DNA from: Patiria miniata | Taxonomy: Eukaryota > Echinodermata > Asteroidea > Valvatida > Asterinidae | Direction of reading: 5' to 3' | Assembly (NCBI RefSeq): GCF_015706575.1 | Contig: NW_024037074.1 | Coordinates: 30,741,334 to 30,805,333 of the forward strand | Length of the DNA: 64,000 bases | Part shown: one piece after another, positions 26,601-57,500 of the stretch | Layout: every line of letters begins with the position of its first letter | Position numbering within the stretch: the stretch's first letter is position 1 | Made by a program: the position numbers and the translations under genes | The notes under the pieces: generated by a model | Databases searched by the model: none | What the model saw: the letters and a program-made list of their open reading frames with translations, nothing else | Told to the model about the DNA's origin: nothing

Positions 26601-29600
26601 TTCTAGTAAATGCATCAGAGTAATGCATAGGCCTACAGTGGGTTTAAAAGTAGGTTTGTTAATAACTTCAAGAATGACAAACCAAATGTACAAAAATAAA
26701 ATGTGGAAAAGCAAATTTGGGGGCTATTTTTTTATGCATATTATTCAAAAACTCATTGTGGGCCTTATTATTTCATCTCAAATTGAATCCATCGTAATGT
26801 TGTCTGTTGTTTAATCACCTCTCTGCTATTTCGTGTGCTTTGTGTGGCTCTTTTGCTTTTGTTTTTATCTTTTAACTGTCAAAAGTTAGAAGTTGAAATA
26901 ATGAATGGTATGATCTTGTTTTTTGGTCATGTGTTATGTACAAGGTGGTGTGAGTAGCACGTTTTCAATAAAATTTGTCAAAACTTGACATGTTTATCAT
27001 TTCCTCTTTCTTACTGGTTTTTTTTTCCAATCGAACACAACCAGCTGAAAATTTCAGTTGGAGCGAGTTCAACTGGTTTCCATTGGTTTCAACTGGTACA
27101 CGTTTATATAAACTGAAACTGGATGACTGGTTTTGAAGTGGTTTAACTGTTTTTGAACTGGTTTTGAAATGGTATAACTGGTTTTGAGCCAGTTAAACCA
27201 GTTCAAACTCTGTTAAACCAGTTCAAAACTTGTCACCAATTTCCACTTGAACTGGTTTCAACGGGAATTTTCACCTGGGCATAACGGGATCAGCGGTTGT
27301 TGGCTATTTCAACTACCTGCCGCCTCTTTGCAAAAGAGGGGATCAGGTTTGAAATAGTCAGCACCCGGGTACCAGAAGTTGAATATTGCACTACTGTCCC
27401 TGAAACCATGCTGGAAGCGGTGTACTGGACTTTCCGTCTTTATCATGAGGTTAACAACATGTTTTTTTTGGTATTATTTCATCTGGAATTGCAGGAATTT
27501 TGGAGAAGGAAGCACATGAGATGCAGGCAGAGCTGACCAAGCAGAAGTGAGTTTATTCATTGGAATGGAATGCAATTAAGACTTGAGTAATTTTTATTAT
27601 TAAGGGAATAAATGTGTGTTTGGGAGATATTAAGACCGGTTGGAGTCTGGATGGGTGATAATTACCCGAGGCGAAGCCGAGGGTAATTATCAGCACTCCA
27701 GACTCCAACCGGTCTTAAACAGAGTGTTTAATACCGACCAAGCACATATTTATTCGCATTCAGAAATACCTTTTTGGGACAAAAAATAATCTTTTCGGTC
27801 CAAAAACCAAAACAAGTCAAAACCTAGACGTTGCCAACCATTTTGTTTAACAATTTTACTGCATGTTTTATGAAACACCCCTCTGACTCTAGTATGGAAT
27901 GTCCCTCTACAACTCCTTACCTTATAAGGAGATTAACGCGCAAGTCGCGCGTACTGCGCAATGTCGCGCAGAATGCACCTTGGGCATTGCATTGTGAATT
28001 TAGGACCATAAAATACTGACTCACTCGTAGTATTGCGCATTCCTACGTGAGGATTGTGAACGTTTAACCAATAAAACGGATAGAGGCACTGGATTTTTAG
28101 GAGTCCAAATTTCATGTGACACTGGAAAAGTGTTTAAGACCAGCTAGCCATGTCTTTATCATTGGCTTAAGACCAGCCACGTGACGGGCTCTCGACCAAT
28201 AGGAATGCGTAAACGGTCTTACGTATTTATGAATTATTATTCATCACTTGGCATTTGTGACTCGTCTGGATTCTGCAGAACAAGAGCTTTCTAATGGTAT
28301 ATACATATAAGGGTGCTGAGTTGAGTAACAGAAATATAAATTGCCAACTAAATTGACATTGCACAAGTTATTTAAAAAATAATACCATTTCAAATATCAT
28401 GCTGTTGTATTCCAGTATAAATGAACAGTCAGCTAGTAAAATGGGATGAAAAGAGGTTTTAAAGACGTTTGATTGATCAAATACAACGGGGAAAAGTTGA
28501 ACAGGACTTAAAAATGGAGGTTCACCAGAAAACGAAAGTTGACCGTCCCTTCAATTTTGGCTTTGCCCCACTGTACCGCAAATGGCAATTTCTGACTTTG
28601 TGCTCATTTTGGAGTGACATAACTTGTTTGGTTGGGTATGCCCATGGAAGTCTTCCAAATTTTTTCCTGGGATTCCTTGGCAGAAGATGGAAGAAGGAAA
28701 TTACAGTTTATTCCAGATGGGAGGAAAACCCCCAGAATGACATTCTAGAAAAACCCATGGAATCAGGTAGGGACCGAAAACCCAGTCCACATGTCATCCT
28801 GGGCAGCACTTTACTAAAGGAACCACCCAGATCTTCTTTGAGGCTCTCTTAAACAAAGAATCTCTGGCGCATCTTTCAGGCGCAGGCAGTCCCCGACTCC
28901 AGATGGAGAGTCCACCCTGAGGTCCCAGCTCTTGGAGCGCAGCCACACTATCAACCAGCTCCAGGCCGAGATAGCCACCAAGAACATCGCCCTGGAGTCC
29001 ATGAGGCAGGGACTGGATGCTCGGGTGGACAGCAAGAACCAGGAGATCAGTGAGCTGATGAGAGAGAAGGAGGAGCTGAATGAGACAAGGAGGAGACTGG
29101 AGCAGGAGAAACTAGTCCTGGAGATCAAGGTGAGTTGGGTCTTAACAGACTATTCGTCTTAGATATCGGGAAGCATTGGGTCAAACTAGGATGAGACTGG
29201 AACAGGAGAAACTAGCCCTTGAGAGAAGAAACTCTTAACTAGTTAAAACCAGTTTTGTAACCAGCCCTCGCTGTTTATACCAGTTGGGGCCAATTTCACG
29301 GCGCTGCTAAGCACAAAAATTTGCTTAGCACAAAAAAAGTCTGGCTTATAAAAGCAGGTTACCAGCCAAAACTCCATGTGATGTATATTGCTCTTGAGTA
29401 GTATTGAGCTGTTGTTTGCTATAGCATGAAAATCACATGGAGTTTTGGATGGTTAACTGCTTTTATAAGCCAGACTTTTTTGTGCTAAGCAATTTTATTT
29501 TGCTTAGCAGTGCCGTGAAATTGGGCCCTGGTTGATAAGCAGAGGTCAGTGATAACCCTTGAGAAAAGAAACTCTTTACTAGTTTAAACCATTTTTGTAT

Positions 29601-38600: not shown

Positions 38601-41600
38601 TGCTGGACTGTTAGTGAATGACAGTGTAAAGCATCCTGTGAAATCATGGCACCTGGTATACTGTCATTTTCAAGAAAAGTGGTATTTTTGTATCAATTTC
38701 CAACGCTGGTCGGCCGACCAGCGTTGGAAAAAACTGGCTTTTTTTCAAATACTGGCCCCAATTGACCATCGCACTTGTTTGCAATCGATTACACACCTAT
38801 GAACGGGTACAAGCCAGGTAGACTGGTTCCCTGACCTTACAATTCCCCAATGTATGTAAACTGCTCTGTTTCTTCTTATATGGAGTCAGGGAACCAGACT
38901 ACAGGAAAATGATTGTTTTTCTTGGTTTTTATAGCATTTTCGAACCCAAAACCTCAAAAAAGTCAGTGTAACTATATTTGCTATATATTTCCAACCCCCC
39001 AATTCCATCCATTTCTGAAAATTACAGCAAAAGCAAATGATGTATATTCCCTTTAAAGTTTGCATTTATCGACATGTTGAACAAGCAAAATACCGAGAAA
39101 CAGGCCTATTTAAAGTTTCAAGTTTTGCAATGGTTTTTTCCTTTAAAACACTTGTATTTTTATACTATTTCTTTAACCCTAACCCCCTTGAGTGATTTCC
39201 TAGGAACCTTCCTCACACTTGCAAAATCCAACACCACATGGTAACTCAACATCCAAACGGGCTCGATATGCCTTTTCTGTGTCCACCTGGATTTGACTAT
39301 GACGTGTGAAGCAAGATCATGAATATTTATGAGATAAACCTCTTGCTTGTGTTTTCCCTCGTGGTAAAAGGTTAGAGGTCAAGATCCAGACCCAGGAGGA
39401 GGAGTTACATATGCCCTGATCCGATTGGTCAGTGGTCATGAATATAAAAGATCCTATTGCTTGTGTTTTTCCTCTGGGTCAAAGGTTAGAGGTCAAGTTC
39501 CAGAGCCAAGACTTACATGCCCACAACTGATTGGTCCATGATCATGAATATATGTATAAGGCAATGAATATGTATAAGGTGAACCCTTTGCTTGTGTTTT
39601 CCCTCTGGTTCAAAGGTTAGAGGTCAAGATCCAGACCCAGGAGGAGGAGCTACACGCCCTGAACCGACTGGTCACCGATCTTCAAAACCGCAACAAGAAG
39701 CTTGAGCAGACTCGAGACACACTGCAGGAGAACGTGGAGACGTATCGGGGGCGGAATAAGAAACTTGAAGATGTGGAGAAAGCGCAGAAGAAAGAGATGG
39801 AGACGCTGAAGGAAACGGGTAAGAAATATAGGAGAGAATTGACTGGAATGGGATTACAACCTGCCAGCTTTGAACAATTAAAATAAGGGAATAAATGTGC
39901 GCTTGGCGGGTTTTAAACACTCTGTTTAAGACCAGTTGGAGTCTGAAAGCTGATAATTACCTGAGCTGAAGGCGAGGGTGATTATCAGCATCCAGACTCT
40001 AACCTGTCTTAAACAGATTGTTTAATACTGGCCAGGTACCTTTTTGGTTAAATAATCAAAACTTTTCGGTCTAAAAGTCCAAACAAGTCCAAAATTATAA
40101 ATTTCCAACGTTTTTTGTTCAACAAATTTACCTCATGTTTTTCAGAACACCCCTCTAGCTATATTATGGACTGTCCAATCTCGCGAGTGCAGTGTCATAA
40201 GCAACTCCTTATATTGAGATTGGCGTGCGCGGCACATGTACTTCGTGATGTGGCGCACAACGCATCTGTGCCGGTGTATTGTGAATTTAGGACTATCAAA
40301 TTCTGACTGGTAGTATTGCGCATGCTGTGGGTGAGATTTGTGAACGTTCAACCAATAAAACGGTAAAGGCACCGGATTTCATAGGAGTCCAAATTTCATG
40401 TGGCACTGGAAAAGTGTTTAAGATCAGCCAGCCGGTCTTTATCAACTGTTTAAGACCGGCCACGTGACGGGCTTTTGACCAGTATGAATGGGTAAACTGT
40501 CTTAGGTATTTATGAATGACAGCTTAAGTACGAGTTCAACCAGACTCCTTCACAAATCATTCACAAATCAATCACAAGTCCATTAATTATTCGTCTTTTA
40601 TATAACTGACATGCAGATCCTTGTCATTTGATTGGTGGAACTCACATCTAGTGACATTCGTTATTGCTCCCATTCACGCCGGGGCTCAAAAAGTCCAATT
40701 CGTCCATGGGGAATGGGAAATACCATTCAACAGTTAAAATCATTCTTGTTCCATGACGCGGTATTTTTTGTGCAAATGCATGCTGGTGTGCGTGTTCAGC
40801 GTTGCGTGTATTGCTCCAAAGAGCCAGCGCTACAGAGTTGGGTTCAAACATTTTTCTTGAAGGGGTGGTTTGGAAGAGAGAAATACATTTTCCCCCAATT
40901 TTGTATTGAAATCAAAGTTCAAATATATCAAATGACAATGATCTGTATGTCAGTTATATAAAACAAATACTGAGTGGCTTTAAATTGTGGAATGGGAGGA
41001 ATATTACCGCTCGGTAAAATCTGGACTTTTCAAGTTCACTCGGCTTCGCCTCGTGAAATGGAAAAGTCCCAATTTTCCTTTGCTATAATATTCCTCCCAT
41101 CTCACTCTGAGCCACTCAATATTTGTATACTAATACAGCGCTTCTTCGTTCTGGTTGCATGCTTCTGTGTATTATTTCAACTGTTTGCCGTAGCCGGAGC
41201 CAAGTGCACAAAGTGCAGGCGTCTAGAGGCTCAGTACGAGGAGGTGTTGGGAGAGAAAGAAAGCCTCGAAGAAGAGAACGAGGAACTGCATCAAGAAGTA
41301 GAAAACTTGGAAGGGCTGCTGAATATCCAGACACAAGATGCCAAGAAAAGGTGAGAATATGCTGGGGCGGTGTTGGGTTGGGTTCGTTCAGTGTACTTGA
41401 ATTGTCTCTCATTTCTGGACAGTTTTGAAGTTGAGTTGATCACTGTCCCTTTAAAATGAGATTTGAAGGTTTGCATGGTGGAAAGATACTAAGACAAGAT
41501 AAGTTTGCGGTAGCACCATGTGAATAAATCTCTTTTGTGAGTATGTGTGGTTCTGAAAAGAACCGGAGGGACTCAATGTTTCAAACAGTACGCTCTGCCC

Positions 41601-44512
41601 GTAGTCAGGAGAAATGGGCAGAGCATACTGTTCGAAACGTTGAGTCCCTCCGGTTCTTTTCAGAACCACACATACTCACAAAAGAGATTTATTCACGTGG
41701 TGCTACGACAAACTTATCTTGTCTTGTCCCTTTAAAGTCGGTCACAAGTCAATCATTCAGTCCCAACTTAAAGGTCATACACAACTTTGCTTTTGCTGGG
41801 TTTTTTTCAGAAATGGATGGATTTGGGGGTTACTATTTTAAAGCAAATATTGTTACACTGATCTGTTTAAAGTTTTGTGCTCATAGATGCTGGAAAAAAC
41901 CTGTTCTTGTAGTCTGGTTTCCTGATCCTACTTCAGACGAAACGGAGCAATATATAGACGTCAGGGAATTGTCGGGTCAGGAAACCAGACTAGCTGGCTT
42001 GCGCCCGTTCACGGATGTGTAACTGATTGCAAACAGAATATGGACTAAATTTGGTAAATTAGGGGCAGTATTTGGAAAAAGTCCATTTTTTCCAACGATT
42101 GTCAGCTGATCATCGTTGGAAATCGATACATAAATTCCACTTTTATTGAAATGACAGCACACCAGGTGCCATGATTTCACAGGATGCTTCGACTATTATT
42201 CACTTACGGTCTAGTAAGATATTCCGTAATAATTTGGTAGTTTTGTTTTTTGATGTTGTAAATGTTGTATATTACCAAAATACACATTATTCAAATGAAT
42301 CATGACAAAAGGCATTCTTCTGTATGTTGTTATTCTATCACAAATTTGTTATTTTATCACATCTTGTTTTATTGGGAGTCTGCTGAAAAGATAAGAAATT
42401 TGATTTTGTGGCAGCACATTGTGGTCCCTGAAATTAAACACCCATGCTTGACTTTATTTGGAGACTGACTTTTGAGAGCTTTTCTCAACTATGTTTAAAA
42501 AGAATTTAGCATTTCCTTTTCTGCAACCCCTAGTCAAATGAAACCCAAGGAGCCAGTCAAGAAATCCCCGGTGAAAGAGGAGATCAGCATCACCCAACAA
42601 ACCCCAACCGAATCTAAGAGACCCGGATCAGGGTCTGGCTCCCCGTCCCCCCGCGGTGCGTCCCCAGTGCCCAAGAAGGTCGCCAATCCCTTGGAGCTGG
42701 CCGCCGCGTTGAAGAGACTGTCCAACAAGACGGCTGCCGACGCGGCCAAACGTCGGGGTTCGGGCGATTCCCCGGACTCCAAGAGAGGCTCGCAGGATCT
42801 GGGAGCCTCCTTCGAGGCCAGCGGGGCGTCCATTCGCGGGATCCCAGAGGCAGGGCGTTACGACCAGAACAAGCGCGCCTCGCTGAACTCCATGGAGGCA
42901 CGTCTGCAGGCTTTGAGGAGCTCTAGCCAGGTCAAGCCGGTCAAGGGAATCCTGGAGAAGAAGGATCTTGGTGCGTCCGGGGAGCAGCCCAAGAAGCAGG
43001 CACGCTTTGTCCTGCCGTCCAGCCGGAAGTTTGATAAACCACAGGTGGTCGGGACGAGAGATGACATGTAAGGGAATTTGAATACAAATCTACCGTAAGT
43101 GTGTAAAAAAAAATAATAGTCGACATGGTTTCGTATCGGTCCCAAAACACCTGGTAAAACTGATGACAAATGTATCTTTCCTTTGCCTTTAATAAAAGTT
43201 GTGTGCGAATCCTTCGAAAATAACATTGTTTCTCATGAAGGAGAAAAAAATGTCCTACCTTTCTCGCCTTTTCCTTCCAAATGCCTTGGAATTGAAGGGT
43301 GCAATTTCTTATTATCTGAAGTTTGAATTTTTGTTCTATTAACGGACTTCCTAAATTCAATTTTTCTCCATCCAATACCTAAAGAGTACAATCTGTTGTC
43401 ACACTTTGATAAAAGATACATCATGACTTAGAAATTCAAAAAGTTGATCTTCAGTCCTTTTGTTTTTAGGTTTATAATCTGGCTAAACTCGCTCATATTT
43501 TGGATAAAACTAGCGTACAGTGATTATTAGTATGAACAGGTTTTGAATCAAAATTGTGTTCATGAAATATTTCCTTTTATATGACTGAAATGCAGATCCT
43601 TATCATTTGATTGGTGGAACTCGCATCATGTGACATTTATTATTGCTGCCATTCACGCCAGGGCTCAAAAAGTCCCATTCACCCACGGGAAATATGGGAA
43701 ATGCTATTGAACAGTTAGGATCATTCTTGTTTCATGACGCGGTATTTGTGTTCAAATGCATGCTGGTGTGCGTGTTGCGCACACCACGTATTGTTATACA
43801 AATATTGAGTGGATCAGCGTTAAATGGGAGGAATATTATCGCAAGGTAAAATCTGGACTTTTCCATTTCACGAGGCGAAGCCGAGTGAACTGGAAAAGTC
43901 CAGATTTTACCTCGCGATAATATTCCTCCCATTTCACAATTTAAAGCCACTCAATATTTGTTTTATATAACCGACATATAGATCCTTGTCATTTGATATG
44001 TTTGAACTTTTATTTCAATACAAAATTGGTGAAAAATGTATTTCTCTCTTCCAAACAACCCCTTCACGAAAATGTTTGAACCCAACGCTGTAGCGCTGGC
44101 TCTTTGGAACAATAGGCGCTACGCACAACGCTGAACGCACACACCAGCATGCCTTTGCACACAAATACCGTGTCATGGAACAAGAATGATCCTTACTGTT
44201 GAATAGTATTTACCATTCCCCATGGGCGGATAGTACTTTTAGAGCCCCGGCGTGAATGGCAGTAATAACGAATGACACGTGATGTGAGTTCCACCAATCA
44301 AATGACAAGGATCTGTATGTCGGTTATATAATCCCAACTATTGTTTAGAACCAAAGGGCTTTGCCTCATGACATTTATAACAAAAAGTCCAGATTTTACC
44401 TTGCGGTAATGTTCCTCTCATTCCATATTTTTATAACTATCTTTTAAAAATGGTTCTTTATTTCTCATTTGTTTTCTTTTGCAGTCCATCTGATCAGGCG
44501 CATGCTGTGTAA
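2378..44512 (+). CDS. Long coiled-coil protein gene (31 exons, 5' end outside window)
   Basis: Spliced coding region of 5041 bases: one leftover base, then 1679 codons and a TAA stop. All 31 exons have AG/GT borders and every junction preserves frame, which is strong evidence that the model is right. Visible residues 1-50 are Ser/Pro/Arg-rich; about 50-1490 is heptad-rich coiled coil full of E, K, Q, L and R; about 1492-1679 is a basic Ser/Pro/Lys tail ending in HAV. CxxC motifs sit at residues 676-679 (CHNC) and 1445-1448 (CTKC). No kinase, motor, GRIP or transmembrane segment is visible. The layout of an SP-rich linker followed by coil faintly recalls rootletin/CROCC, and centrosomal or cytoskeletal scaffolds in general; this is inference and no orthologue is assigned. 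It converges on the ARB2A homologue, 9.2 kb between stop codons. Confidence 0.85.
2665..2865 (+). repeat. Dispersed repeat, copy 1 (inverted relative to 33125-33330)
   Basis: The stretch including AATAGACCATTATCATGTTG and GGGAACATGACTGAAATGGT reappears as its reverse complement at about 33130-33320. The two copies are in opposite orientation in two introns of the same gene. Family unknown; no coding sequence. Confidence 0.6.
2943..3015 (-). tRNA. tRNA-Ala(GGC)-like sequence, probably a pseudogene or SINE-type copy
   Basis: On the minus strand a 73-base cloverleaf can be drawn. The acceptor stem is GTCTGGA/TCCAGTC with one mismatch, the D arm has the A-box-like GTTCAGTTGGTAGAGC, the T arm is GCAGG-TTCAAAC-CCTGC, and a 5-bp anticodon stem closes the loop ACGGCAA. 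The triplet in the anticodon position is GGC. C replaces the invariant U33, and GGC-Ala is not a normal animal cytosolic tRNA, so a functional gene is unlikely. No intron or oligo-T terminator is seen next to the 3' end. Confidence 0.5.
3271..3740. repeat. Large inverted duplication containing exon 2 of the coiled-coil gene
   Basis: The left arm (about 3271-3505) and right arm (about 3520-3740) are reverse complements around a centre near 3512. The right arm carries exon 2 with its acceptor and donor; the left arm carries the same exon and flanking intron in reverse. The innermost arms are nearly identical. The left arm has an extra 29 bases in the exon copy, so that copy is out of frame. No terminal motif or target duplication marks it as a transposon. 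Confidence 0.8.
3576..3638 (+). CDS. Coiled-coil gene exon 2
   Basis: Acceptor CCTTCAG, donor GTGAGT, 63 bases, phase 0 at both ends: 21 residues, exactly three heptads, including AFRHRLQRYINILK. It is placed in the right arm of the inverted duplication because only this arm gives an open 63-base exon on the plus strand. Confidence 0.65.
3929..4012 (+). CDS. Coiled-coil gene exon 3
   Basis: Acceptor TTGTTCAG, donor GTACTT; 84 bases, phase 0 at both ends: 28 residues (four heptads), starting RQTERLCDSEAK. Confidence 0.8.
4013..5002 (+). other. Intron 3, no element recognised
   Basis: About 1 kb of AT-rich intron between exons 3 and 4. I see no inverted repeat, tRNA-like box or tandem repeat here. 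Confidence 0.5.
5003..5100 (+). CDS. Coiled-coil gene exon 4
   Basis: Acceptor TATTCCAG, donor GTTTGT; 98 bases, ends two bases into a codon. It encodes DLHKKVAGLQREKDRTVEG and then QEIIHQNDKLQQ. Confidence 0.8.
5145..5880. mobile_element. Non-autonomous inverted-repeat DNA element, copy 1
   Basis: The ends are imperfect inverted repeats (GGCCGCACTCGGGTTGATC against GGGCGGCCTCAGGTCGACC). A second copy at 21402-22333 shares the whole layout, including GACTGACTTTTCAGGA near the left and GGGTGACGTGAG near the right. The middle third differs between copies. No transposase is visible; superfamily not assigned. Confidence 0.6.
5881..6416 (+). other. Remainder of intron 4
   Basis: T-rich intron without recognisable repeats; the last 20 bases give the exon 5 acceptor. 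Confidence 0.5.
6417..6561 (+). CDS. Coiled-coil gene exon 5
   Basis: Acceptor CCTTTCAG, donor GTAACC; 145 bases. Its first base completes an Arg codon from exon 4. It encodes VDDLYQELKRTKLSQESLQ and continues in the same coil. Confidence 0.85.
6586..6860 (+). repeat. GC-rich dispersed repeat with a YY1-like box, copy 1
   Basis: About 260 bases match the reverse complement of 58110-58345. Shared pieces include GACGTCCCATGGGCGGGACA, GTACACCAGGGGATTTGTAC and GGCAAGATGGCGTCGGTTGG. The box AAGATGGCG matches the core of the known YY1 site. Origin unknown. Confidence 0.6.
7336..9647. mobile_element. Outer inverted-repeat element hosting a pogo-like insertion
   Basis: About 110-base inverted repeats at 7336-7441 and 9537-9647 share TAGGGGCTAGACGTTG, GCGATAACCC and GGAACAACGTCTAGGG. 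What remains between the arms, apart from the inner element, is about 270 bases of non-coding DNA, so this is a non-autonomous element. No clear target duplication was found. Confidence 0.65.
7522..9346. mobile_element. pogo/Tigger-like DNA transposon, degenerate or non-autonomous
   Basis: The terminal inverted repeats CAGTCGGCTCCCGTTATAGC and its near-perfect complement are flanked by TA on both sides (7520-7521, 9347-9348). CAGT-start repeats containing CGTTATA and a TA target site are typical of the pogo/Tigger group. Inside, about 110 bases around 7935-8045 are repeated at about 8085-8190. No frame longer than about 80 codons is open, so no transposase is encoded. It sits inside the element of 7336-9647. 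Confidence 0.75.
9752..9825 (-). tRNA. tRNA-Thr(AGT)-like sequence, probably a SINE head or pseudogene
   Basis: On the minus strand the acceptor stem GGCTCGG/CCGAGTC pairs fully (one G.T). The loop CTAGTAA matches that of animal tRNA-Thr(AGT), and the T arm contains GGGTTCAAATCC. One extra base beside the anticodon loop spoils the arm, so this is probably not a working tRNA. The adjoining about 80 bases show no tail that would identify a SINE family. Confidence 0.5.
9900..10013 (+). CDS. Coiled-coil gene exon 6
   Basis: Acceptor CATTTTCAG, donor GTAACT; 114 bases, phase 0 at both ends: 38 residues beginning MKESMIKETKALRESLQ. Confidence 0.85.
10512..10627. mobile_element. Short hairpin MITE with a telomere-like core
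   Basis: CTCTATGTTCCGACACCCC and its complement form arms at 10512-10538 and about 10601-10627. The loop holds three CCCTAA-type units at about 10559-10577. The CCCTAA run is part of this short repeat and not a telomere. No coding sequence. Confidence 0.6.
10694..10819 (+). CDS. Coiled-coil gene exon 7
   Basis: Acceptor TTTGCAG, donor GTGAGA; 126 bases, phase 0 at both ends: 42 residues, six heptads, starting KHELLAAQNAELNSQLLEE. Confidence 0.85.
10820..11913 (+). other. Intron 7, no element recognised
   Basis: About 1.1 kb of intron. Short open frames occur but lack support. A fragment GGGTACTGGTTCCTGCCCTC with a partly complementary GGGGACCGGAAACCAG near 11165-11220 may be a small decayed hairpin repeat. 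Confidence 0.45.
11914..12081 (+). CDS. Coiled-coil gene exon 8
   Basis: Acceptor CGTTTTAG, donor GTAGTA; 168 bases, phase 0 at both ends: 56 residues, eight heptads, starting EREVFQSRATQLEEKCADLN. Confidence 0.85.
12117..12330 (-). mobile_element. SINE, family B, decayed copy
   Basis: It shares GCACTGTAG, GCAAGCCTGAAGA, ACAGTTTTAGAGGTGG-like and AACCCAATCCACATG blocks, in the same order, with 60155-60392, where a tRNA-like head is readable. Read on the minus strand, the head region near 12260-12310 is too mutated to fold. Confidence 0.6.
12535..12665 (+). repeat. Half of a hairpin repeat (GGTTCTGAAAAGAACCGG family)
   Basis: It contains GCCATGTGGAAA and GGTTCTGAAAAGAACCGG as in the complete hairpin at 41500-41718, but the second arm is missing. 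Confidence 0.55.
13046..13625. mobile_element. MITE with TTAA ends, in intron 8
   Basis: The left end TTAAAGTGTCCATGCGATGA and the right end CATTGTATGGGCCTTTTAA are imperfect inverted repeats. TTAA is present at both edges (13046-13049, 13622-13625). The left 250 bases recur in inverted orientation at 14128-14391, on the other side of exon 9; a related end fragment lies near 10420-10500. No coding sequence. Confidence 0.65.
13886..14011 (+). CDS. Coiled-coil gene exon 9
   Basis: Acceptor CTCTTCAG, donor GTTTGA; 126 bases, phase 0 at both ends: 42 residues, six heptads, starting TRQTLEGRLTELQLEVTQSK. It lies between two inverted copies of the same MITE. Confidence 0.85.
14128..14391 (-). mobile_element. 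5' half of the 13046-13625 MITE family, inverted
   Basis: The reverse complement follows 13050-13320 closely (GGAACACATTTTGTGCAACT, GAACCCA, GAAAGACACTGTTCAG). Only this half is present; the other end is missing. Confidence 0.65.
14558..14725 (+). CDS. Coiled-coil gene exon 10
   Basis: Acceptor CTGTTAG, donor GTAGGT; 168 bases, phase 0 at both ends: 56 residues, eight heptads, starting VSEVLSLELAAARTNLEKSH. Confidence 0.85.
14804..15035. mobile_element. hAT-like MITE of the GTTGTAGTCGAG group
   Basis: The right end CTCGACTACAACACTG matches the end of the well-preserved element at 50311-50815; the left end CTGTGTTGCAGTGGAGG is a decayed complement. The interior is built of CACAAGTC/GACTTGTGAT units. 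No clear 8-bp target duplication. Confidence 0.55.
15735..15872 (+). CDS. Coiled-coil gene exon 11
   Basis: Acceptor GACACAG, donor GTAAGT; 138 bases, phase 0 at both ends: 46 residues starting ALEQHKQEFMREREQLEEQH. Confidence 0.85.
15873..16730 (+). other. Intron 11
   Basis: Contains one decayed end of the hAT-like GTTGTAGTCGAG group (about 16005-16055, with repeated CCGAGTACC) and otherwise unassigned intron. The opposite end of that element was not found. Confidence 0.45.
16731..16892 (+). CDS. Coiled-coil gene exon 12
   Basis: Acceptor ATTGTTAG, donor GTAAAT; 162 bases, phase 0 at both ends: 54 residues including SSERLTASLNRKDSEITAL. Confidence 0.85.
17018..17666. mobile_element. TA-flanked inverted-repeat transposon (mariner-like ends), non-autonomous
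   Basis: Long inverted repeats (over 100 bases, with A/T-run differences) start CAGGGCGAGTCAAAAA and end in its complement. TA flanks both sides (17016-17017, 17667-17668), as in Tc1/mariner elements. Only non-coding DNA lies inside. The element at 51841-52593 has related ends (CGAGTCAAAAAAA, AACCCAAA). Confidence 0.7.
17729..17908 (+). CDS. Coiled-coil gene exon 13
   Basis: Acceptor GTTTACAG, donor GTAGGC; 180 bases, phase 0 at both ends: 60 residues including EYREEADRLREENKQLAQDH. Confidence 0.85.
17909..18796 (+). other. Intron 13, no element recognised
   Basis: About 0.9 kb. Open frames here are read-through of exon 13 in wrong frames. Confidence 0.5.
18797..18876 (+). CDS. Coiled-coil gene exon 14
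   Basis: Acceptor CTTTAG, donor GTAAGT; 80 bases, ends two bases into a Glu codon. It encodes SPGGQRMTAEQLQAQVDHLR, a break with Gly and Pro followed by renewed coil. Confidence 0.8.
18877..19740 (+). other. Intron 14, no element recognised
   Basis: About 0.86 kb. A box ATCGTGGAC recurs three times (19047-19170) and TCCATGATTGCCG lies nearby inverted; perhaps a decayed repeat, too weak to classify. Confidence 0.45.
19741..19936 (+). CDS. Coiled-coil gene exon 15 (first CxxC)
   Basis: Acceptor GCGTTAG, donor GTGAGT; 196 bases. It encodes DKVNELREELARERAQ, then a non-helical stretch GVTRRSARSTPVPCHNC, then EL..QILKLQELNSLLSERIQR. The CHNC motif (residues 676-679 of the visible protein) sits at the break between two coil segments. 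Confidence 0.85.
20268..20806 (+). mobile_element. TTAA MITE family A, copy 1
   Basis: Shares the full layout of family A: CATTTGCTTTTGCTG near the left, AGTCTGGTT, an imperfect internal hairpin AACGTCGGTCGGCCAACCAG, and ATTTGCAAATGTTGTATATT at the right. The right edge has TTAA (20803-20806); the left edge has decayed. Four other copies lie at 31855, 38535, 41768 and 44633. Confidence 0.75.
20857..21074 (+). mobile_element. CCCTAACT family MITE, copy 1
   Basis: About 218 bases shared with 37808-38029 and 62833-63049: TAGCATGATTTACTAGGAA, GTGCCAACCCA, TTTAGGGGTACTGTACC and ends CCCTAACTTCC/GAGTTCTGTTAGGG. The better-kept copies have TTAA flanks; this one has lost them. Confidence 0.7.
21149..21351 (+). 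CDS. Coiled-coil gene exon 16
   Basis: Acceptor CACTCAG, donor GTAAGT; 203 bases, ends inside a Gln codon. It encodes MENESHQTSLRSKAVSDLQ and a further coil through DSMSKVEYDQ. Confidence 0.85.
21402..22333. mobile_element. Non-autonomous inverted-repeat DNA element, copy 2, with nested hAT-like insertion
   Basis: Second copy of the family at 5145-5880. Ends GCCGCTCTGGGGTCGACC and GGTCGATTTGAGGGTGGC are inverted. It is longer because a 440-base element (21545-21984) has inserted. Confidence 0.65.
21545..21984. mobile_element. hAT-like MITE with 8-bp target duplication
   Basis: Ends CAGAGTTGTAGTCGAGTAC and GTACTCGACTACAACTCTTG are inverted. The flanks are ATTGGCAT (21537-21544) and TTTGGCAT (21985-21992), a 7-of-8 match as expected for an aged hAT target duplication. 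The right part is an array of GGAAAGTACTC units. No coding sequence. Confidence 0.75.
22529..22689 (+). CDS. Coiled-coil gene exon 17
   Basis: Acceptor GCGCGCAG, donor GTACAT; 161 bases, ends one base into an Asp codon. It encodes MERERTRLKLDYERLKSDY and then a Ser/Thr/Gly-rich part DHLSRTLDSTGLGASL. Confidence 0.85.
22753..23031 (+). repeat. Pair of about 68-base direct repeats in intron 17
   Basis: The block with TTTTGCCCTTCACCGA and ACTGTATACTCAGTGTGTTA occurs at 22753-22823 and again at 22962-23031. Between them is a tRNA-like T-box (GGTCGAGTCCCACC on the minus strand). It could be a decayed repeat with short direct ends; not classified. Confidence 0.5.
23032..23749 (+). other. Remainder of intron 17
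   Basis: No repeat or exon recognised; ends in a T-rich tract and the exon 18 acceptor. Confidence 0.45.
23750..23875 (+). CDS. Coiled-coil gene exon 18
   Basis: Acceptor TCCAACAG, donor GTAAGA; 126 bases, split codons at both ends. It encodes QLESEIRKLQLENESLKRQ and further coil. Confidence 0.85.
24477..26118. mobile_element. TTAA MITE inserted in the SINE head
   Basis: Ends AGGTATAGTCCATCATTTG and CAAATGATGGACTAT; TTAA duplicated at 24477-24480 and 26115-26118. Removing it restores the SINE string GGTGCTCTTAACCGCTAGG. A complete relative lies at 33541-33985. Its right tip is interrupted by the element at 25009-26102. Confidence 0.8.
25009..26102. mobile_element. hAT-like non-autonomous element nested in the MITE
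   Basis: Starts CAGGCCTTGAATT and ends AATTCAAGCCC. The 8-base direct repeat TGGACTAT flanks it exactly (25001-25008 and 26103-26110), the hAT signature. The termini carry repeated GGCACCAAGGCCA-type units. The longest open frames show no transposase features. Confidence 0.8.
26141..27040 (+). other. Intron 18 middle part, no element recognised
   Basis: AT-rich; short open frames on both strands have no support. Confidence 0.45.
27041..27279. mobile_element. Short MITE filled with AACTGGTTT units
   Basis: Ends CCAGCTGAAAATTTCAGTTG and its approximate complement (CAACGGGAATTTTCACCTGG). The interior repeats AACTGG or CCAGTT about 15 times, changing orientation midway, so it can fold back. No target duplication seen. 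Confidence 0.6.
27495..27546 (+). CDS. Coiled-coil gene exon 19
   Basis: Acceptor AATTGCAG, donor GTGAGT; only 52 bases, split codons at both ends. It encodes ILEKEAHEMQAELTKQ. Confidence 0.8.
27601..28245 (+). mobile_element. Palindromic repeat family P1, copy 1
   Basis: Begins AGGGAATAAATGTGTG, then a roughly 70-bp stem (27640-27720, GACCGGTTGGAGTCTGGATG and complement) with apex at 27664-27684. It continues with a unique-looking half containing GAACGTTTAACCAATAAAACGG, AAGTGTTTAAGACC and CACGTGACGGGCTCTCGACCAATAGGAATG. Other copies: 39887-40520, 48610-49266 and 57147-57773 (the last two inverted). Confidence 0.75.
28680..28805 (-). mobile_element. SINE, family B, partial copy
   Basis: Shares GGGAGGAAAACCC, CCAGAATGACATTCT, GGTAGGGACCGAAAACCCAG and GTCCACATG with the family B copies at 12117 and 60155. 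No head is readable. It ends about 75 bases before exon 20. Confidence 0.55.
28880..29129 (+). CDS. Coiled-coil gene exon 20
   Basis: Acceptor CTTTCAG, donor GTGAGT; 250 bases. It starts with a basic, proline-containing hinge (RRQSPTPDGES) and continues LRSQLLERSHTINQLQAEI through LEQEKLVLEIK. Confidence 0.85.
29190..29995 (+). repeat. Tandem array of acceptor plus partial exon 21 copies
   Basis: About five units of roughly 95 bases (starts near 29529, 29621, 29717, 29813, 29908) plus a leading partial unit. Each carries CAG then GTTGATGAGC..GTCAGTGATA, resembling the start of exon 21, followed by AACTCTTAACTAG and an intron-like tail. Units soon reach stops and lack donors, so they look like pseudo-exons. 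Confidence 0.8.
29286..29528. mobile_element. Hairpin MITE inside the exon 21 array
   Basis: Arms of about 100 bases start GGGGCCAATTTCACGGCGCT and end AGTGCCGTGAAATTGGGCCC. They contain TGCTTAGCA and AGTCTGGCTTATAAAAGC with complements. It interrupts one array unit, so it inserted after the duplication began. Confidence 0.75.
29998..30150 (+). CDS. Coiled-coil gene exon 21
   Basis: Acceptor CTACCAG, donor GTAATA; 153 bases, phase 0 at both ends: 51 residues, VDEQKSVINLLREEKPRIM then AELHAEFIQADRNAKKLEND. It is the only member of the array with a complete exon and donor. Confidence 0.85.
30326..31054 (+). CDS. Coiled-coil gene exon 22 (largest exon)
   Basis: Acceptor TTCTTTAG, donor GTAGGG; 729 bases, phase 0 at both ends: 243 residues of unbroken, very charged coiled coil. 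An internal duplication is visible: REREVTDLQAELTRKESEI resembles KEKEVMDLRNELTRREAEL about 52 residues later. Richer in G and C than neighbouring introns. Confidence 0.9.
31504..31635 (+). CDS. Coiled-coil gene exon 23
   Basis: Acceptor TTTTCAG, donor GTCAGC; 132 bases, phase 0 at both ends: 44 residues starting QSMNAVEEELASVKGELQRV. Confidence 0.85.
31855..32376 (+). mobile_element. TTAA MITE family A, copy 2 (best preserved)
   Basis: TTAA at both edges (31855-31858, 32373-32376). Ends AGGGAATATACATCATTTGC and GCAAATGTTGTATTTTCCCT are inverted. The centre has a perfect palindrome around GATCGGCCGATC. About 520 bases, no coding sequence. TTAA plus AGGG tips fit Kolobok or piggyBac-type non-autonomous elements. 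Confidence 0.8.
32500..32640. repeat. Hairpin repeat with GGTTTGC arms
   Basis: GAATGAAAGGTTTGCGGAAA and its complement face each other around GGTTCTTGAAAGAACC. Related to the hairpin at 41500-41718. Confidence 0.6.
33125..33330 (-). repeat. Dispersed repeat, copy 2 (see 2665-2865)
   Basis: Reverse complement of the repeat beside exon 1: ACCATTTCAGTCATGTTCCC and CAACATGATAATGGTCTAT. It has a T-run at 33201-33215. Confidence 0.6.
33415..33479 (+). CDS. Coiled-coil gene exon 24
   Basis: Acceptor GTTTCGTAG, donor GTGAGT; 65 bases, ends inside an Asn codon. It encodes KEELQRDKTDMRRKLEAELD. Confidence 0.8.
33541..33985. mobile_element. TTAA MITE, intact relative of 24477-26118
   Basis: TTAA at both edges (33541-33544, 33982-33985). 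Ends AGGTAGCGTCCATCATTTG and GCAAATGATAGACTTTACCT are inverted. Internal strings AAGTTGCCGAGTCATGTTTT and CGCTTGCGCGC are shared with the split copy. Confidence 0.8.
34005..34290 (+). mobile_element. tRNA-derived SINE, family C
   Basis: The head has a tRNA-like A box (GTGGCCAAGTGG) and B-box-like GGGGTTGGAGTCC. The body contains TTGGGCAAGCCACTTCATCC, CTCTCCACCCAGGAGTATAA and ATGGGTACC, motifs common to SINE families of many marine animals. It ends near TTTACTTTACT. A minus-strand fragment lies at 59698-59805. Confidence 0.7.
34371..34789. mobile_element. piggyBac-like MITE (TTAA-CCCTAAC ends)
   Basis: TTAA at 34371-34374 and 34786-34789. Ends CCCTAACCTTCC and GGGAGTTAGGG are inverted, with CCC/GGG tips as in piggyBac elements. 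GGAGGATTTTGCAGGA-type units repeat inside. Confidence 0.65.
35010..35103 (+). CDS. Coiled-coil gene exon 25
   Basis: Acceptor CTTCTAG, donor GTAGGT; 94 bases. It encodes MDTIRDLNRRIDQHKTEVEL then MKEKCKALEGQ. Confidence 0.85.
35104..35547 (+). other. Intron 25, left part
   Basis: No element recognised except a 12-base G tract at about 35441-35452. Confidence 0.45.
35548..35804. mobile_element. TTAA MITE with GAGCGAGGCCGG boxes, copy 1
   Basis: TTAA at 35548-35551 and 35801-35804. Ends CTAGTTTGCGCC and GGCGCAAACTGG are inverted. Inside, GAGCGAGGCCGGAAATAT occurs twice. Copy 2 lies at 62527-62780. Confidence 0.75.
35805..37467 (+). other. Intron 25, right part
   Basis: Mostly unassigned. Around 36545-36740 GGATTTTGATGGA and complements recur and can fold, ending in GGTTAGGGTTAA, so this is probably another decayed MITE. 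A C tract of about 15 lies at 36783-36797. Confidence 0.4.
37468..37485 (+). CDS. Coiled-coil gene exon 26 (microexon, putative)
   Basis: Acceptor CTCCGTAG, donor GTAGGT; 18 bases, phase 0, encoding STDNSA. Leaving it out also keeps frame, so it could be alternative or spurious. The GT-AG borders are good but evidence is otherwise thin. Confidence 0.45.
37600..37745 (+). mobile_element. Probable LINE 3' tail with (AAT)n end
   Basis: A stretch with GTGGCTGCCTACCTCGTGTG and ATGAATAAACCAG runs into six AAT units (37722-37739). Such tails are common for CR1/L2-type LINEs; no coding part is attached. Confidence 0.4.
37808..38029 (+). mobile_element. CCCTAACT family MITE, copy 2
   Basis: TTAA at 37808-37811 and 38026-38029; same internal sequence as copies at 20857 and 62833. 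Confidence 0.7.
38253..38281 (+). CDS. Coiled-coil gene exon 27
   Basis: Acceptor TTTTACAG, donor GTGAGC; only 29 bases, encoding HGDRDEFSK and two bases of an Arg codon completed by exon 28. Needed to keep frame between exons 25 and 28. Confidence 0.7.
38535..39056 (-). mobile_element. TTAA MITE family A, copy 3 (inverted)
   Basis: TTAA at 38535-38538 and 39053-39056. The reverse complement follows copy 2 almost base for base, including the central GGTCGGCCGACC palindrome. Confidence 0.8.
39343..39615 (+). repeat. Two tandem copies of the exon 28 acceptor and exon start
   Basis: GCTTGTGTTTT..CCTC, then AAAGGTTAGAGGTCAAG, then a decayed match to the first about 60 bases of exon 28 occur at about 39350-39440 and 39465-39545, followed by the true exon at 39616. 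Unit length is about 110-135 bases. The copies carry stops and have no donor. Confidence 0.75.
39616..39818 (+). CDS. Coiled-coil gene exon 28
   Basis: Acceptor GTTCAAAG, donor GTAAGA; 203 bases. It encodes LEVKIQTQEEELHALNRLV and coil through KKEMETLKET. The third and only complete member of the local acceptor array. Confidence 0.85.
39887..40520 (+). mobile_element. Palindromic repeat family P1, copy 2
   Basis: Same order of blocks as 27601-28245; apex at 39959-39979 (stem changed, see findings). It contains CACGTGACGGGC and CAACCAATAAAACGG. Confidence 0.75.
40590..41138. mobile_element. Palindromic repeat family P2, copy 1
   Basis: Contains CATTTGATTGGTGGAACTC, ATGCATGCTGGTGTGCGTGT, then a long stem formed by GAGTGGCTTTAAATTGTGGA and complement with apex at 41037-41055. 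Two more copies lie at 43560-44430. Confidence 0.7.
41194..41350 (+). CDS. Coiled-coil gene exon 29 (second CxxC)
   Basis: Acceptor TTGCCGTAG, donor GTGAGA; 157 bases. It encodes AGAKCTKCRRLEAQYEEVLG and coil with heptad leucines to NIQTQDAKKR. CTKC is residues 1445-1448 of the visible protein. Confidence 0.85.
41500..41718. repeat. Near-perfect hairpin repeat (GGTTCTGAAAAGAACCGG family)
   Basis: Arms of about 84 bases (41500-41583 and 41635-41718) with GTGAGTATGTGTGGTTCTGA and complement; the loop holds ACGCTCTGCCCG. Half copies at 12535 and 32500. Confidence 0.75.
41768..42277 (+). mobile_element. TTAA MITE family A, copy 4
   Basis: TTAA at the left edge (41768-41771); the right end GTTGTAAATGTTGTATATT is decayed. 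Same internal order as copy 2. Confidence 0.75.
42534..43067 (+). CDS. Coiled-coil gene exon 30 (basic Ser/Pro tail)
   Basis: Acceptor ACCCCTAG, donor GTAAGG; 534 bases, ends inside an Ile codon. It encodes a non-coiled tail: KEPVKKSPVKEE, SGSGSPSPRGASPVPKK, a short helix ELAAALKRLSNKT, then VKPVKGILEKKD and ARFVLPSSRKFDKP. High Lys, Ser and Pro are usual in microtubule- or chromatin-binding tails and in Cdk targets (several SP sites); binding is inference. GC-rich. Confidence 0.85.
43560..43968. mobile_element. Palindromic repeat family P2, copy 2
   Basis: Stem AATGGGAGGAATATTATCGC with complement; apex at 43869-43887. The left part contains CATTTGATTGGTGGAACTCG. Confidence 0.7.
43969..44430 (-). 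mobile_element. Palindromic repeat family P2, copy 3 (inverted)
   Basis: Runs in the opposite direction to copy 2 and abuts it: GAGTTCCACCAATCAAATGAC near the right, CATGCCTTTGCAC inside. The stem part at about 44375-44430 is decayed. It ends 55 bases before the last exon. Confidence 0.6.
44485..44512 (+). CDS. Coiled-coil gene exon 31 (stop)
   Basis: Acceptor TTTTGCAG. After one base completing Ile it encodes PSDQAHAV and TAA. The short last coding exon is supported by frame, acceptor and a T-rich tract. Confidence 0.75.
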
Positions 44513-48609: not shown

Positions 48610-49266
48610 ATTCATAAATACCCAAGACAGTTTGCCCATTCCTATTGGTCAAGAGCCTGTCACATGGCTAGTTTTAAACCGACATTTATAAATACCTAAG
48701 ACAGTTCACGCATTCTTATTGGTCGAGAGCCAGTCACGTGGCCGGTCTTAAACGAATGATAAAGACATAACTGGCTGGTCTTAAACACCTTTCCAGTGTC
48801 ACATGAAATTTTGACTCTCATGAAATCTGGTGCCTTTTAACGTGTCATTGGTTGAACGTTCACATTCCTCTCGTATGCATGCGCAATACTTCCAGTGAAT
48901 CATGGCGCAGTACGCGCGACGCGCACGCCAATGTCCTTATAAGGTAACGAGTTGTGGAGGGGCATTTCATATTATAGTCAGAGGGGTGTTTTGTAAAACC
49001 TGAAGTAAAATTGTTGAACAAAATGGTTGGCAACGTCTAGTTTTTGGCTTGTTTTGATTTTTGGACCGAAACGATTTTGTTTTTTGACCGAAAAGGTATT
49101 TATGAATGGGAATAAATATGTGTTCGGTCGGTATTAAACACTCTGTTTAAGACCGGTGGGAGTCTGGATGGGTGATAATTACCCGATGCGAATATCACCC
49201 ATCCAGACTCCCACCGGTCTTAAACAGAGAGTTATAATACCTCCCGAACACACATTTATTCCCTTA
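48610..49266 (-). mobile_element. Palindromic repeat family P1, copy 3 (inverted)
   Basis: Contains TCACGTGGCCGGTCTTAAAC, TTGGTTGAACGTTCACA and the stem GACCGGTGGGAGTCTGGATG. The left border segment (ATAAATACC..CCTATTGGTC) is present twice. The apex is truncated. Confidence 0.7.
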
Positions 49267-49662
49267 GTAATATATGACTGGGCTCTGTGCCACATCACGC
49301 AGTACACGCGCGCCAATATCCATATATAAGGAGATTTGTAGCACAACGCGTGCGAGGCACATACATGTACATGTACCATAGACATGGCCAGAGGAGTGTT
49401 TCACAAAACTTGAAGTAAAATTGTTAAACAAAATTGTTGGAAATGCATAATTCTTGACTTGTTCTCCATCTTTGAGCAAAAGGTATTTATGAATGGGAAT
49501 AAATATGTGCTTGGCAGGTATTAAACAAGAATATTTTTAAAACGGGCTAGGGGCCTGGACACAGAAAATGGTCCGAGTCGAATCTACGTCCAGGTCCCTA
49601 GCTGGTTTTAAAACGTACTTGTATAAAACCCGCCAAGCACATATTTATTCCCTTATTTATAT
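49267..49662 (-). mobile_element. P1-related fragment fused to another hairpin
   Basis: Begins with P1-like CACATCACGCAGTACACGCG and TGGGAATAAATATGTGCTTG, then a different stem (AACGGGCTAGGGGCCTGGAC and CCAGGTCCCTAGC) and ends CAAGCACATATTTATTCCC. Confidence 0.55.
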
Positions 49663-54520: not shown

Positions 54521-57500
54521 CGTCAATGATAATTTTTTTCGAAACTCAAAATCTCAGTGGGGGAGGCGACTGGGGGTGGGCGACAAGGTTTCATGGGGGG
54601 GGACTGTCGCCCCCCCCCCCCCCCCCCCCCCGCTACGCCACTGCAGGTCATACAGTTAAAGTTTATGTAAACGTAACTCTCATGATCTATTTGACACCAA
54701 GTTTGTGTTAACTTGCCGGTAATGCCCATGTACGTAATGCAAGTGCATGTACATGTACAGTCATGTTCAGTTTTTTATTAATCGAAATTAGGGGGGGGGG
54801 GGGGTGGGTGGGTCAAAATAATTTGGAAAAAAAGTCGAAATTTTAAAACATTGAAAATTCTGAATGGCCCCTAATACATCAGCACCAATAGTTGCCAGAA
54901 TCTGGGTTTTTTTTAGCACTGTATATTGTGTCTGTATTTCAATGTTGATTTGGAAGATAGCAGCTAGTAATAGCAAACTAACCTGTTGCAATGAGCAACA
55001 TGTCATTTTCATTATCAGTACAGAAGATCAAGGTACTGTGAAGTGATTACCATAATATGATAAGATCATCTTGTCATAAGTGTTGTGGCCCTCTGTTATT
55101 GTTCATCCTCTGTTACACCTCGTTCCCACTTGAATTGGAAAAAGGTGGATCAAGATCCGGCATTTTGGTGTGATTGTTATCTTACCCGCAACGAAACCGC
55201 AAGTCGCGTTCCCACTTATGCTTGATCCACCTTTTCATACGGAAGTGTCGAGTCCAAAAGGTCACCGAGTTCGGAATTACGCGAGCTCTGTGGGAGTGCC
55301 GGTGTTGCATGCTAGGCCAGGACGGGTCAGTTTTCAAACAGCACTATCAGTATCAGAATTCACCGACAAAAATTACGCACATTCACCGACATAAATCACA
55401 GATCCGTAGAGGATCCGTGCGTGCATAAATTAACTGGTAAAATCGAACAGCACCGCTCATTGTGTGACATCACGGCAGAAACCAATGCATCGATAAGGGA
55501 TTCCCTGGTTCTGGAGCTTCTCATTGGTTAGAAATGGTCACATGATATACTACCACATCATTTTCCAATTTTTTATAATCAATACTACAGATTTGTCACC
55601 TCCGTACATACTGCGTTATCGGCACTATTCTCATCTCATACTCGTAAGCTTTACAGTGATTCTGTGCCAAAGTGAAGTGTTTTGGTGAGTGCGGACTCAG
55701 AGTCATTTATGGATGGAAAAATAAGTAAAATTTCACGAATAAAAAAGGTTTAGAAAATGGACGAATACGCAACGAAAATGGTAAAAGGCCTAGTGTAGTT
55801 TTAGGATATACCACGTGCGCTGCATGCATGCGATATGCATGCATCGTGCATGCGCGGTGATTTACTTTAATGATAGACTTGCGATGGACCTCGCTATAAC
55901 ACTTGATCATACCTGCTGATACCCTTGTACAGTCATAACCTCTATCATCCACAACAGTCCCTAGCGGCTTGTGAGATGACACCCAGTTGACTGCATTCTA
56001 AAGGGATATTCAAATTACATATATATATACTCATTATCCAGACAACAGTGCAATAGTTATGTACTCATTTACAGTGCAATATAATCACTACGGCAATACT
56101 GCAATATGCTCAGTGCAACAGTGCAATATACTCAGGGCAATATTGCAATGCACTCATGAGGGCAACAGTGTGATATATTCATGAGGACAAAAGTGCAATA
56201 CACTCATTAGGGCAATAGTACAATACAGATATTAGGATAATAGTGCAATGCATGTATAGTCATAATTAGGGCAACTATGTAATATACTCCAGGCAATAAC
56301 TGAGTGCAATATAGTCATTAGGGCAATTGTGCAATATACTCGGGGCAAAACTCAGTGCAAAATATAATGAATGCAGTATAGCGCAGTGTATACTAGTGTA
56401 AACAGTGTATACTAGTGTATACTCATAAGGGCAATAATGCAATATAGTCATCAGGTCAACGTTGTAATATACTCATTAGGACAACAGTGCCATGTAGTCG
56501 GGGCAATAGCGCAATATACTCATTAGGTTAATAGTAAAAAATACTCCTAAGAGAAATACAGTAAAACACCGCTATAAAAAAACACTTCTATAACAACCTT
56601 TTGGCTATAACAAACATCCTCTTTGGCTCCCAAAATAGTAAATATAGTAAATGAACTTTGTTATGGACCCAATCATGTTCGTTATGGCGATCTGCTGTAA
56701 GTGCAATATATTCATTAAGGCAACAGAGCAATATACTTATTAGGGCAACAGTTCAATATATTCATTAGGGCAATAGTGTAATAAACTCATTAGGGCACAG
56801 TGAAATATACTCTTTAGGGCAATTATGCAATATAGTCATTTGGGCAACAGTGCAATATACTCGGGGAAATAGTGCGACACAAATTGGGTGTTAGATTTTG
56901 GACTATTTTGGATGGCGAGGGCTACAATTTAAGAGAAACTTACTTGAGTAAACAAGGCGTGAAGAGCATCGTCCATGTCATAGTGAAGGGAATGGACTGA
57001 ATCCGTGAACGCCACAGCAAAAACCTTCTTCATAAAACTCTCCGTTCTCTTCACAGCCTGTAGAAAGGATCATAGAAGTGGGGAAGTATAAAGTGAGATA
57101 TTGTGATTTAAGAAAAATGAGCAGTGTTCATTGATTTGTAAGTCATAAATACCTCAGACAGTTTAGCCATTCCTATTGGTCGAGAGCCCGTCACGTGGCC
57201 GGTCTTAAACGGATGATAAAGACATGGCTAGCTGGTCTTAAACACTTTTCCAGTGTCACATAAAATGTGGCCTCCTAAAAATCCAGTGCCTCTTGCCGTT
57301 TTATTGGTTGAACGTTCACAGTCCTCACGTAGGCATGCGCAACACTACCAGTGAGTCAGAATTTTATAGTTCTAAATTCAAAACGCAACGCCCCAGGTGC
57401 GTTCTGCGCGACATCGCACAGAACGTACCACGCACGCGTCATTCTCCACAAAAGGTTGTTTACATCTTAATCGCCAGCTGAACACTCCATTATTTAGCTA

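What the first reader, a model, noticed from the sequence alone, without database searches (positions are those of the whole stretch)
27664..27684. Conserved hairpin apex with tandem G.A mismatches and a GNA triloop in family P1
The apex of copy 1 reads ACCC-GA-GGC-GAA-GCC-GA-GGGT: GA faces GA as two mismatches, then a 3-bp stem and a GAA loop. In copy 4 (57671-57691, minus strand) the inner stem is GCC-GGA-GGC. In copy 2 (39959-39979) it is GCT-GAA-GGC. The stem bases changed on both sides, yet pairing, the GA/GA mismatches and a GNA loop were kept. DNA minihairpins with GNA loops, GCGAAGC above all, are known to be extraordinarily stable. This looks like selection on a folded single strand, perhaps as a recognition structure, and not simple palindrome decay. 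Only three copies support it here.
Basis: partly seen in the sequence, partly recalled or inferred. Interest (0 to 1): 0.8.

Follow-up and report, generated by a model that had tools for sequence, protein, structure and literature searches.

The report
Shared hairpin tip in two transposons
Two otherwise unrelated mobile-DNA families in this animal-like genome each end in a long DNA hairpin that carries the same unusual 15-base tip, built of a very stable mini-loop and two mismatched G·A pairs, which suggests that the tip itself is what the mobility machinery (or DNA stability) depends on.

Summary
The apex sequences are at the stated coordinates. Within P1 alone the case is thin: only one pair covaries, in one shared state. 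Copy 2 needs T·G pairs. Two further P1 copies (49108-49264, 49495-49653) have lost the apex. Five variable apex columns avoiding six key letters has p about 0.15.

Three results strengthen it. (1) A second palindrome family, P2 (41045 and 43877), has different arms and body but the identical 15-mer CGAGGCGAAGCCGAG. It is the only above-chance similarity between the families. (2) Both families share one anatomy: a terminal palindrome of about 155-170 bp, then a body bounded by inverted repeats. Read palindrome-last, this is the asymmetric-TIR plus 3'-hairpin layout of Helentron/Helitron2 elements. (3) In IMG/VR contigs, two versions of this cap sit on longer stems in 22/203 contexts, against 1/129 for three scrambled caps (p = 0.0002). 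The cap is therefore a recurrent natural hairpin tip and not private to this element.

Best reading: non-autonomous Helentron-like elements whose 3' terminal hairpin tip is conserved as a termination or recognition signal while the stem drifts. This matches Helraiser, where stems can be swapped and loops cannot. Membership is unproven: no 5' hairpin, no RepHel, and the GNA loop lies on the strand complementary to the expected transferred strand.

The parts
27602..27757 (+). P1 copy 1, terminal palindrome (AAGGGAATAAATGTG ... CACATATTTATTCGC)
27664..27684 (+). P1 copy 1 apex ACCC-GA-GGC-GAA-GCC-GA-GGGT
27758..28234 (+). P1 copy 1 body, bounded by ATTCAGAAATACC (27758-27770) and GTATTTATGAAT (to 28234), inverted repeats of about 13 bp; consensus ATTCATAAATACC / GGTATTTATGAAT
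39885..40517 (+). P1 copy 2 (palindrome 39885 to about 40033, body to 40517); apex 39959-39979 with two T-G wobble pairs
48610..49264 (-). P1 copy 3 (palindrome 49108-49264); apex reduced by a 12-nt deletion and inverted relative to the body; 71-74 bp tandem duplication at the other end
49286..49653 (-). P1 copy 5, partial; palindrome 49495-49653 with degenerate apex (CCGAGTCGAAT), directly upstream of copy 3 in the same orientation
57141..57770 (-). P1 copy 4 (palindrome 57599-57770); apex 57691-57671 with GGA loop
43798..44330 (+). P2 copy b: palindrome 43798-43961, apex CGAGGCGAAGCCGAG 43871-43885, body bounded by TATATAACCGACATATAGATCCTTGTCATTTGAT (43964-43997) and its inverted copy (44297-44330)
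40599..41126 (-). P2 copy a: palindrome 40963-41126, apex CGAGGCGAAGCCGAG at 41053-41039 minus, inverted repeats 40927-40960 and 40599-40632
43577..43784 (-). Partial P2 copy (body end plus terminal inverted repeat), inverted relative to P2b and abutting its palindrome
44340..44431 (-). Relic P2 half palindrome that stops at the decayed apex (GAGGC-AAA-GCC)

Best explanation
P1 and P2 are two non-autonomous transposon families of about 530-640 bp with the layout of Helentron/Helitron2-type rolling-circle elements, read palindrome-last: 5' inverted repeat - body - matching subterminal inverted repeat - 3' terminal palindrome. SHOWN: the layout in both families; different stems with one shared 15-nt apex; stems that co-vary along their length; decay of the apex in truncated copies; the same cap preferred on natural stems elsewhere. 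INFERRED: when the end is unwound the palindrome extrudes, and the tip (tandem G.A pairs of the 5'-CGAG/CGAG type, 3-bp GC stem, GNA loop) is the feature read by a trans-acting Rep/helicase as the transposition end or termination signal. The stem is interchangeable. Two families mobilised by the same or related transposases therefore keep the tip and lose all other similarity. Not established: which strand acts, and whether the signal is the non-B fold or merely the sequence.
For: P1 and P2 have the same anatomy but unrelated sequence. The apex is the only P1-P2 match above shuffles (score 17-18 for C1; 40 shuffles, maximum 15). All five intact apices keep GA, GA, G.A and lie on the same strand relative to the body. 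The chance of the identical apex in an independent palindrome is about 1e-7 given paired arms. Eight of 75 pairs are doubly compensated, so hairpin pairing is maintained. P1 copies show no consistent target duplication, and all five palindrome ends read CCCTTA next to A/T-rich flank, as expected of TT-inserting Helentrons. Literature: Helitron2/HINE elements have ATIRs with the 3' one directly upstream of the 3' hairpin (PMC3627910; PMC4067079). In Helraiser the 3' hairpin is a transposition terminator; exchanging its stem kept about 90% activity while changing its loop was as bad as deleting the hairpin (PMC4778049). GNA mini-hairpins are exceptionally stable (PMC4686876).
Against: No 5' hairpin: folding z-scores are -0.43 and +1.57. 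No RepHel partner was identified in 64 kb, and none was systematically searched for. The palindrome is about 150-170 bp, against 5-10 bp in mite HINEs and 19 bp in Helraiser. In palindrome-last polarity the transferred strand carries the TC/TC, TTC-loop face, so the GNA fold would be on the other strand. Only five intact apices from one window. Exact insertion sites are unproven because no empty sites are available.
Confidence: 0.45

Rival explanations
1. Passive inheritance: P1 and P2 descend from one ancestral palindromic end. Arm-to-arm templating (hairpin-primed synthesis, gene conversion) keeps the stems complementary and makes them diverge quickly between families, while the central non-palindromic spacer is out of its reach and is simply inherited. 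The apex has no function.
For: Double changes occur along the whole stem and not only at the apex; within-copy arm identity equals or exceeds between-copy identity for C3 and C4; P1-only conservation is statistically weak.
Against: P1 and P2 stems and bodies show no residual homology while the 15-mer is identical, which an unconstrained spacer should not survive. The inner stem did change with compensation, so the spacer is not beyond change. The sequence kept is just the cap that is also preferred on unrelated stems.
Confidence: 0.27
2. Structural survivorship: long palindromes are cut at their tips, and a compact, nuclease-resistant tip lets them persist. The apex is kept because it protects against tip cleavage or centre deletion, not because a transposase reads it.
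For: Three non-intact copies are damaged at the apex: a 12-nt deletion in C3, degenerate C5, and a P2 relic truncated at the apex. GCGAAGC hairpins are notably nuclease-resistant (PMC4686876).
Against: Other long palindromes in the window (centres 3518, 41607, 52467) survive without the cap. Apex loss left the C3 stem 50/53 paired and still present.
Confidence: 0.14
3. RNA-level function: the palindrome-first strand is transcribed and the apex acts in the RNA hairpin (terminator, processing or Dicer/Drosha substrate).
For: In viral contigs several capped stems are followed by T-runs like intrinsic terminators, for CGAGGCGAAGCCGAG on the cap strand only (5 against 0). Tandem G.A pairs also form in RNA (general knowledge).
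Against: Neither family has an Rfam match. For the second cap the T-runs show no strand preference (3 against 5). No transcript evidence is available here.
Confidence: 0.08

Closest known systems
Helentron / HINE (DINE-1-like) non-autonomous elements
   Same: Subterminal inverted repeats of 12-15 bp (P1: 13 bp), palindrome at the 3' end beyond the 3' repeat, no coding capacity, no consistent target duplication, tandem/partial copies
   Different: 3' palindrome is about 150-170 bp instead of 5-10 bp; P2 repeats are about 34 bp; no microsatellite core found; autonomous partner unknown
Helitron2 (Bao and Jurka 2013)
   Same: Asymmetric terminal inverted repeats, the 3' one immediately upstream of the 3' hairpin
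   Different: The 5' terminal hairpin was not found; the 3' ATIR is 150-170 bp, not 20-30 bp, from the end
Helraiser / canonical Helitron 3' hairpin
   Same: Terminal hairpin whose tip matters more than its stem
   Different: Canonical 5'-TC/CTRR-3' with a 19-bp palindrome 11 nt from the end; here no CTRR and a far longer hairpin with a mismatch-bearing tip
d(GCGAAGC)/GNA DNA mini-hairpins (Hirao, Yoshizawa)
   Same: Same loop class and closing C-G pair; the inner apex GGCGAAGCC contains GCGAAGC
   Different: Here it sits on tandem G.A mismatches on a long natural stem
Fold-back / palindromic MITEs
   Same: Long snap-back palindrome, non-autonomous
   Different: The palindrome is only one end of the element and is followed by a body with its own inverted repeats

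Membership tests
Helentron/HINE | Subterminal inverted repeats of about 11-15 bp, one near the 5' end and one upstream of the 3' palindrome | tested here: met
   P1 ATTCATAAATACC/GGTATTTATGAAT; P2 about 34 bp, longer than typical
Helentron/HINE | Stem-loop/palindrome at the 3' end | tested here: met
   but more than ten times longer than described for mite HINEs
Helentron/HINE | Insertion between T and T, no target duplication | tested here: inconclusive
   No consistent TSD, and CCCT|TA at all five P1 palindrome ends; three of four complete P1 copies read T|TCAT and one reads G|TCAT at the other end; no empty sites
Helentron/HINE | Autonomous partner encoding Rep-helicase-AP endonuclease with matching ends | not testable with these tools
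   Host genome not held
Helitron2 | 5' hairpin formed by the 5' ATIR and downstream bases | tested here: not met
   DNA folding z -0.43 (P1) and +1.57 (P2), 5' ATIR unpaired
Canonical Helitron (Helitron1) | 5'-TC and CTRR-3' ends with a hairpin about 11 nt inside | tested here: not met
   3' end reads CCCTTA directly after the palindrome
GNA DNA mini-hairpin | GNA loop closed by G-C pairs | tested here: met
   C1, C4, P2a, P2b; C2 has a T-G closing pair. Stability itself not measured; model energy is unremarkable
TIR (DDE) MITE | Terminal inverted repeats flanked by a target site duplication | tested here: not met
   One of the two repeats is internal to the palindrome and flanks show no consistent duplication

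The most novel reading that the evidence does not exclude
A eukaryotic rolling-circle transposase recognises a non-B DNA tip (tandem sheared G.A pairs capped by a GNA triloop), so that unrelated element families share only this structure-coded 15-nt tip at the end of very long terminal hairpins.
Probability: 0.2. Interest if true: 0.75.

Novelty: new variant of a known kind. Interest (0 to 1): 0.47.

Why it matters
How rolling-circle transposases find the 3' end of eukaryotic elements is poorly understood. The Helraiser swaps point to the hairpin loop, but natural examples where only the tip is shared between families are what is needed to test it. If the tip is read as a folded shape, these elements make the question directly testable with oligonucleotides. 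The IMG/VR comparison also gives a general result: the GA/GA plus GAA cap sits on natural stems well above chance, whereas permuted caps of the same composition do not.

Tried and rejected
Searching for homologous copies elsewhere: 25- and 34-base patterns gave no IMG/VR match. The single GTDB match is a GC-rich, apparently coding stretch of a prokaryotic MAG and not a relative. The P1 element has no match in phage records. The host genome is not held, so the R-scape-type test asked for could not be run. Literature text search for the 15-mer found nothing. P1-only covariation as proof was rejected. Model folding energy as evidence of special stability was rejected: 0.4 kcal/mol between strands, and a scrambled-tip control of 21 nt folds nearly as well. 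A simple TIR-MITE was rejected because one repeat is internal to the palindrome and there is no consistent duplication. Rfam: no match to P1 or P2. A shared ATTGGT-N10-TCACGTG motif in the 5' parts of P1 and P2 was considered, but its alignment score is within the shuffle range and it is lost in two copies, so it is not used as evidence.

Full report
OBSERVATION. The covariation claim reduces to one pair (G-C to C-G, same state in copies 2 and 4) plus two T·G wobbles in copy 2. Five of 21 apex columns vary and none is one of the six non-Watson-Crick key letters, which happens by chance with probability 0.15. On P1 alone the claim is therefore suggestive but not significant.

WHAT P1 IS. Comparing the copies shows that the palindrome is not free-standing. 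It is one end of a ~640-bp repeat: AAGGGAATAAATGTG ... palindrome ... CACATTTATTCCC, then ATTCATAAATACC - body - GGTATTTATGAAT. The body is bounded by 13-bp inverted repeats, one of which lies inside the element next to the palindrome. Copies: 27602-28234 (+), 39885-40517 (+), 48610-49264 (-), 57141-57770 (-), and a partial 49286-49653 (-) that lies directly upstream of the third in the same orientation. No target duplication is shared by the copies.

A SECOND FAMILY WITH THE SAME APEX. A palindrome scan found two copies of an unrelated palindrome (P2, centres 41045 and 43877) whose apex is the identical 15-mer CGAGGCGAAGCCGAG. P2 has the same anatomy: palindrome 43798-43961, then a body bounded by ~34-bp inverted repeats (43964-43997, 44297-44330), and likewise 40599-41126 on the minus strand. 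Compared end to end, the only P1-P2 match above the shuffle range is the apex (score 17-18 for copy 1; best of 40 shuffles 15). In all five intact apices the GNA loop is on the strand that reads palindrome first. Hairpins with GA/GA tandem mismatches are ten-fold over-represented in the window (5 against 0.45 in simulated first-order Markov sequences).

STEM VERSUS TIP. Across P1, eight of 75 stem pairs have compensatory double changes (shuffled mean 3.6, 0 of 500 reach it; slid partners at most 3), spread along the whole stem. Within a copy the inner arms are, in C3 and C4, as similar to each other as, or more than, they are between copies (C4 52/54, C3 50/53). The stem therefore evolves as a paired unit. 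This may reflect selection, or templating of one arm by the other. Templating would be expected to turn GA/GA into GA/TC, which has not happened in any intact copy. With four sequences these counts are indicative only.

IS THE CAP GENERAL? IMG/VR was scanned for the 15-mer, for the version with the covaried inner stem (CGAGCCGAAGGCGAG), and for three controls (CAGGGCGAAGCCAGG, CAGGCCGAAGGCAGG, CGAGGCAAGGCCGAG). At least three further Watson-Crick pairs flank the cap in 11/92 and 11/111 distinct contexts for the two true caps (1.9 and 1.8 expected from mispaired flanks, P 4e-6 and 2e-6). For the controls the numbers are 1/38, 0/44 and 0/47. Pooled, 22/203 against 1/129, Fisher p = 2e-4 (first version). 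Some of these stems are followed by T-runs like intrinsic terminators. The GA/GA-GAA cap is thus a recurrent natural hairpin tip, which supports the structural reading but also means the apex is not unique to these transposons.

MECHANISM. Read palindrome-last, P1 and P2 match the asymmetric inverted repeat plus 3' hairpin layout of Helitron2 and Helentron/HINE elements (PMC3627910; PMC4067079). In Helraiser, the one rolling-circle element dissected experimentally in the papers read here, the 3' hairpin is a transposition terminator; its stem can be exchanged at about 90% activity while changing the loop is as bad as deleting the hairpin (PMC4778049). Two families that share only the hairpin tip are what such a rule predicts. 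The inference that the tip is read by a transposase is mine. Membership is not claimed: the Helitron2 5' hairpin was not found, the 3' palindrome is far longer than described, no autonomous partner is known, and in this polarity the transferred strand would carry the TTC-loop face and not the GNA face. DNA energy parameters separate the two strands by only 0.4 kcal/mol; the exceptional stability of GNA loops rests on the published measurements (PMC4686876) and not on anything computed here.

RIVALS. Passive inheritance of a central spacer, survivorship of palindromes with nuclease-resistant tips, and an RNA-level role are not excluded. Damage in the non-intact copies lies at the apex (C3, C5, the P2 relic at 44340-44431), which fits tip cleavage of long palindromes.

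VERDICT. Its significance comes instead from the second family and from the cap's general preference for long stems. New variant of a known kind; a genome-wide copy census would decide it.

Noticed in passing
41491-41725: A 110-bp-arm palindrome with histone 3' UTR stem-loops (RF00032, E 1.8e-8) in both arms (41524-41569 minus, 41647-41692 plus), followed by a downstream-element-like AAAAGAGATTT: an inverted duplicate of a histone mRNA 3' end. Helentrons carrying histone fragments are described in PMC4067079.
   Followed up: partly
49495-49653 and 49108-49264: Both P1 copies with damaged apices carry the residual CCGA-NN-CGAA half on the strand opposite to that of the intact copies relative to the body.
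   Followed up: partly
44340-44431: A P2 half palindrome that ends at the decayed apex, 10-20 bp from the end of P2b.
   Followed up: partly
28200, 57175, 48718 (P1) and 44298 (P2): ATTGGT-N10-TCACGTG (CCAAT box plus E-box) about 40 nt from the outer end of both families; the only matches in the window, but within the chance range by alignment score and lost in two copies.
   Followed up: partly
L042 2026-2081, L102 4417-4472, L018 981-1036 (reverse strand of the loci): AT-rich IMG/VR contigs with two neighbouring hairpins both tipped by GCGAAGC on the same strand.
   Followed up: partly
L045, L013, L002, L049, L073, L046: Capped stems followed by runs of T, resembling intrinsic terminators tipped with tandem G.A mismatches.
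   Followed up: no
56075-56885 and 63574-63946: Short tandem arrays of about 25-bp and 27-bp units.
   Followed up: no
2943-3015 (-), 9752-9825 (-): Two tRNA genes or tRNA-derived sequences (RF00005).
   Followed up: no
48610-48753: A tandem duplication of the terminal ~71-74 bp of P1 copy 3, including its terminal inverted repeat.
   Followed up: no
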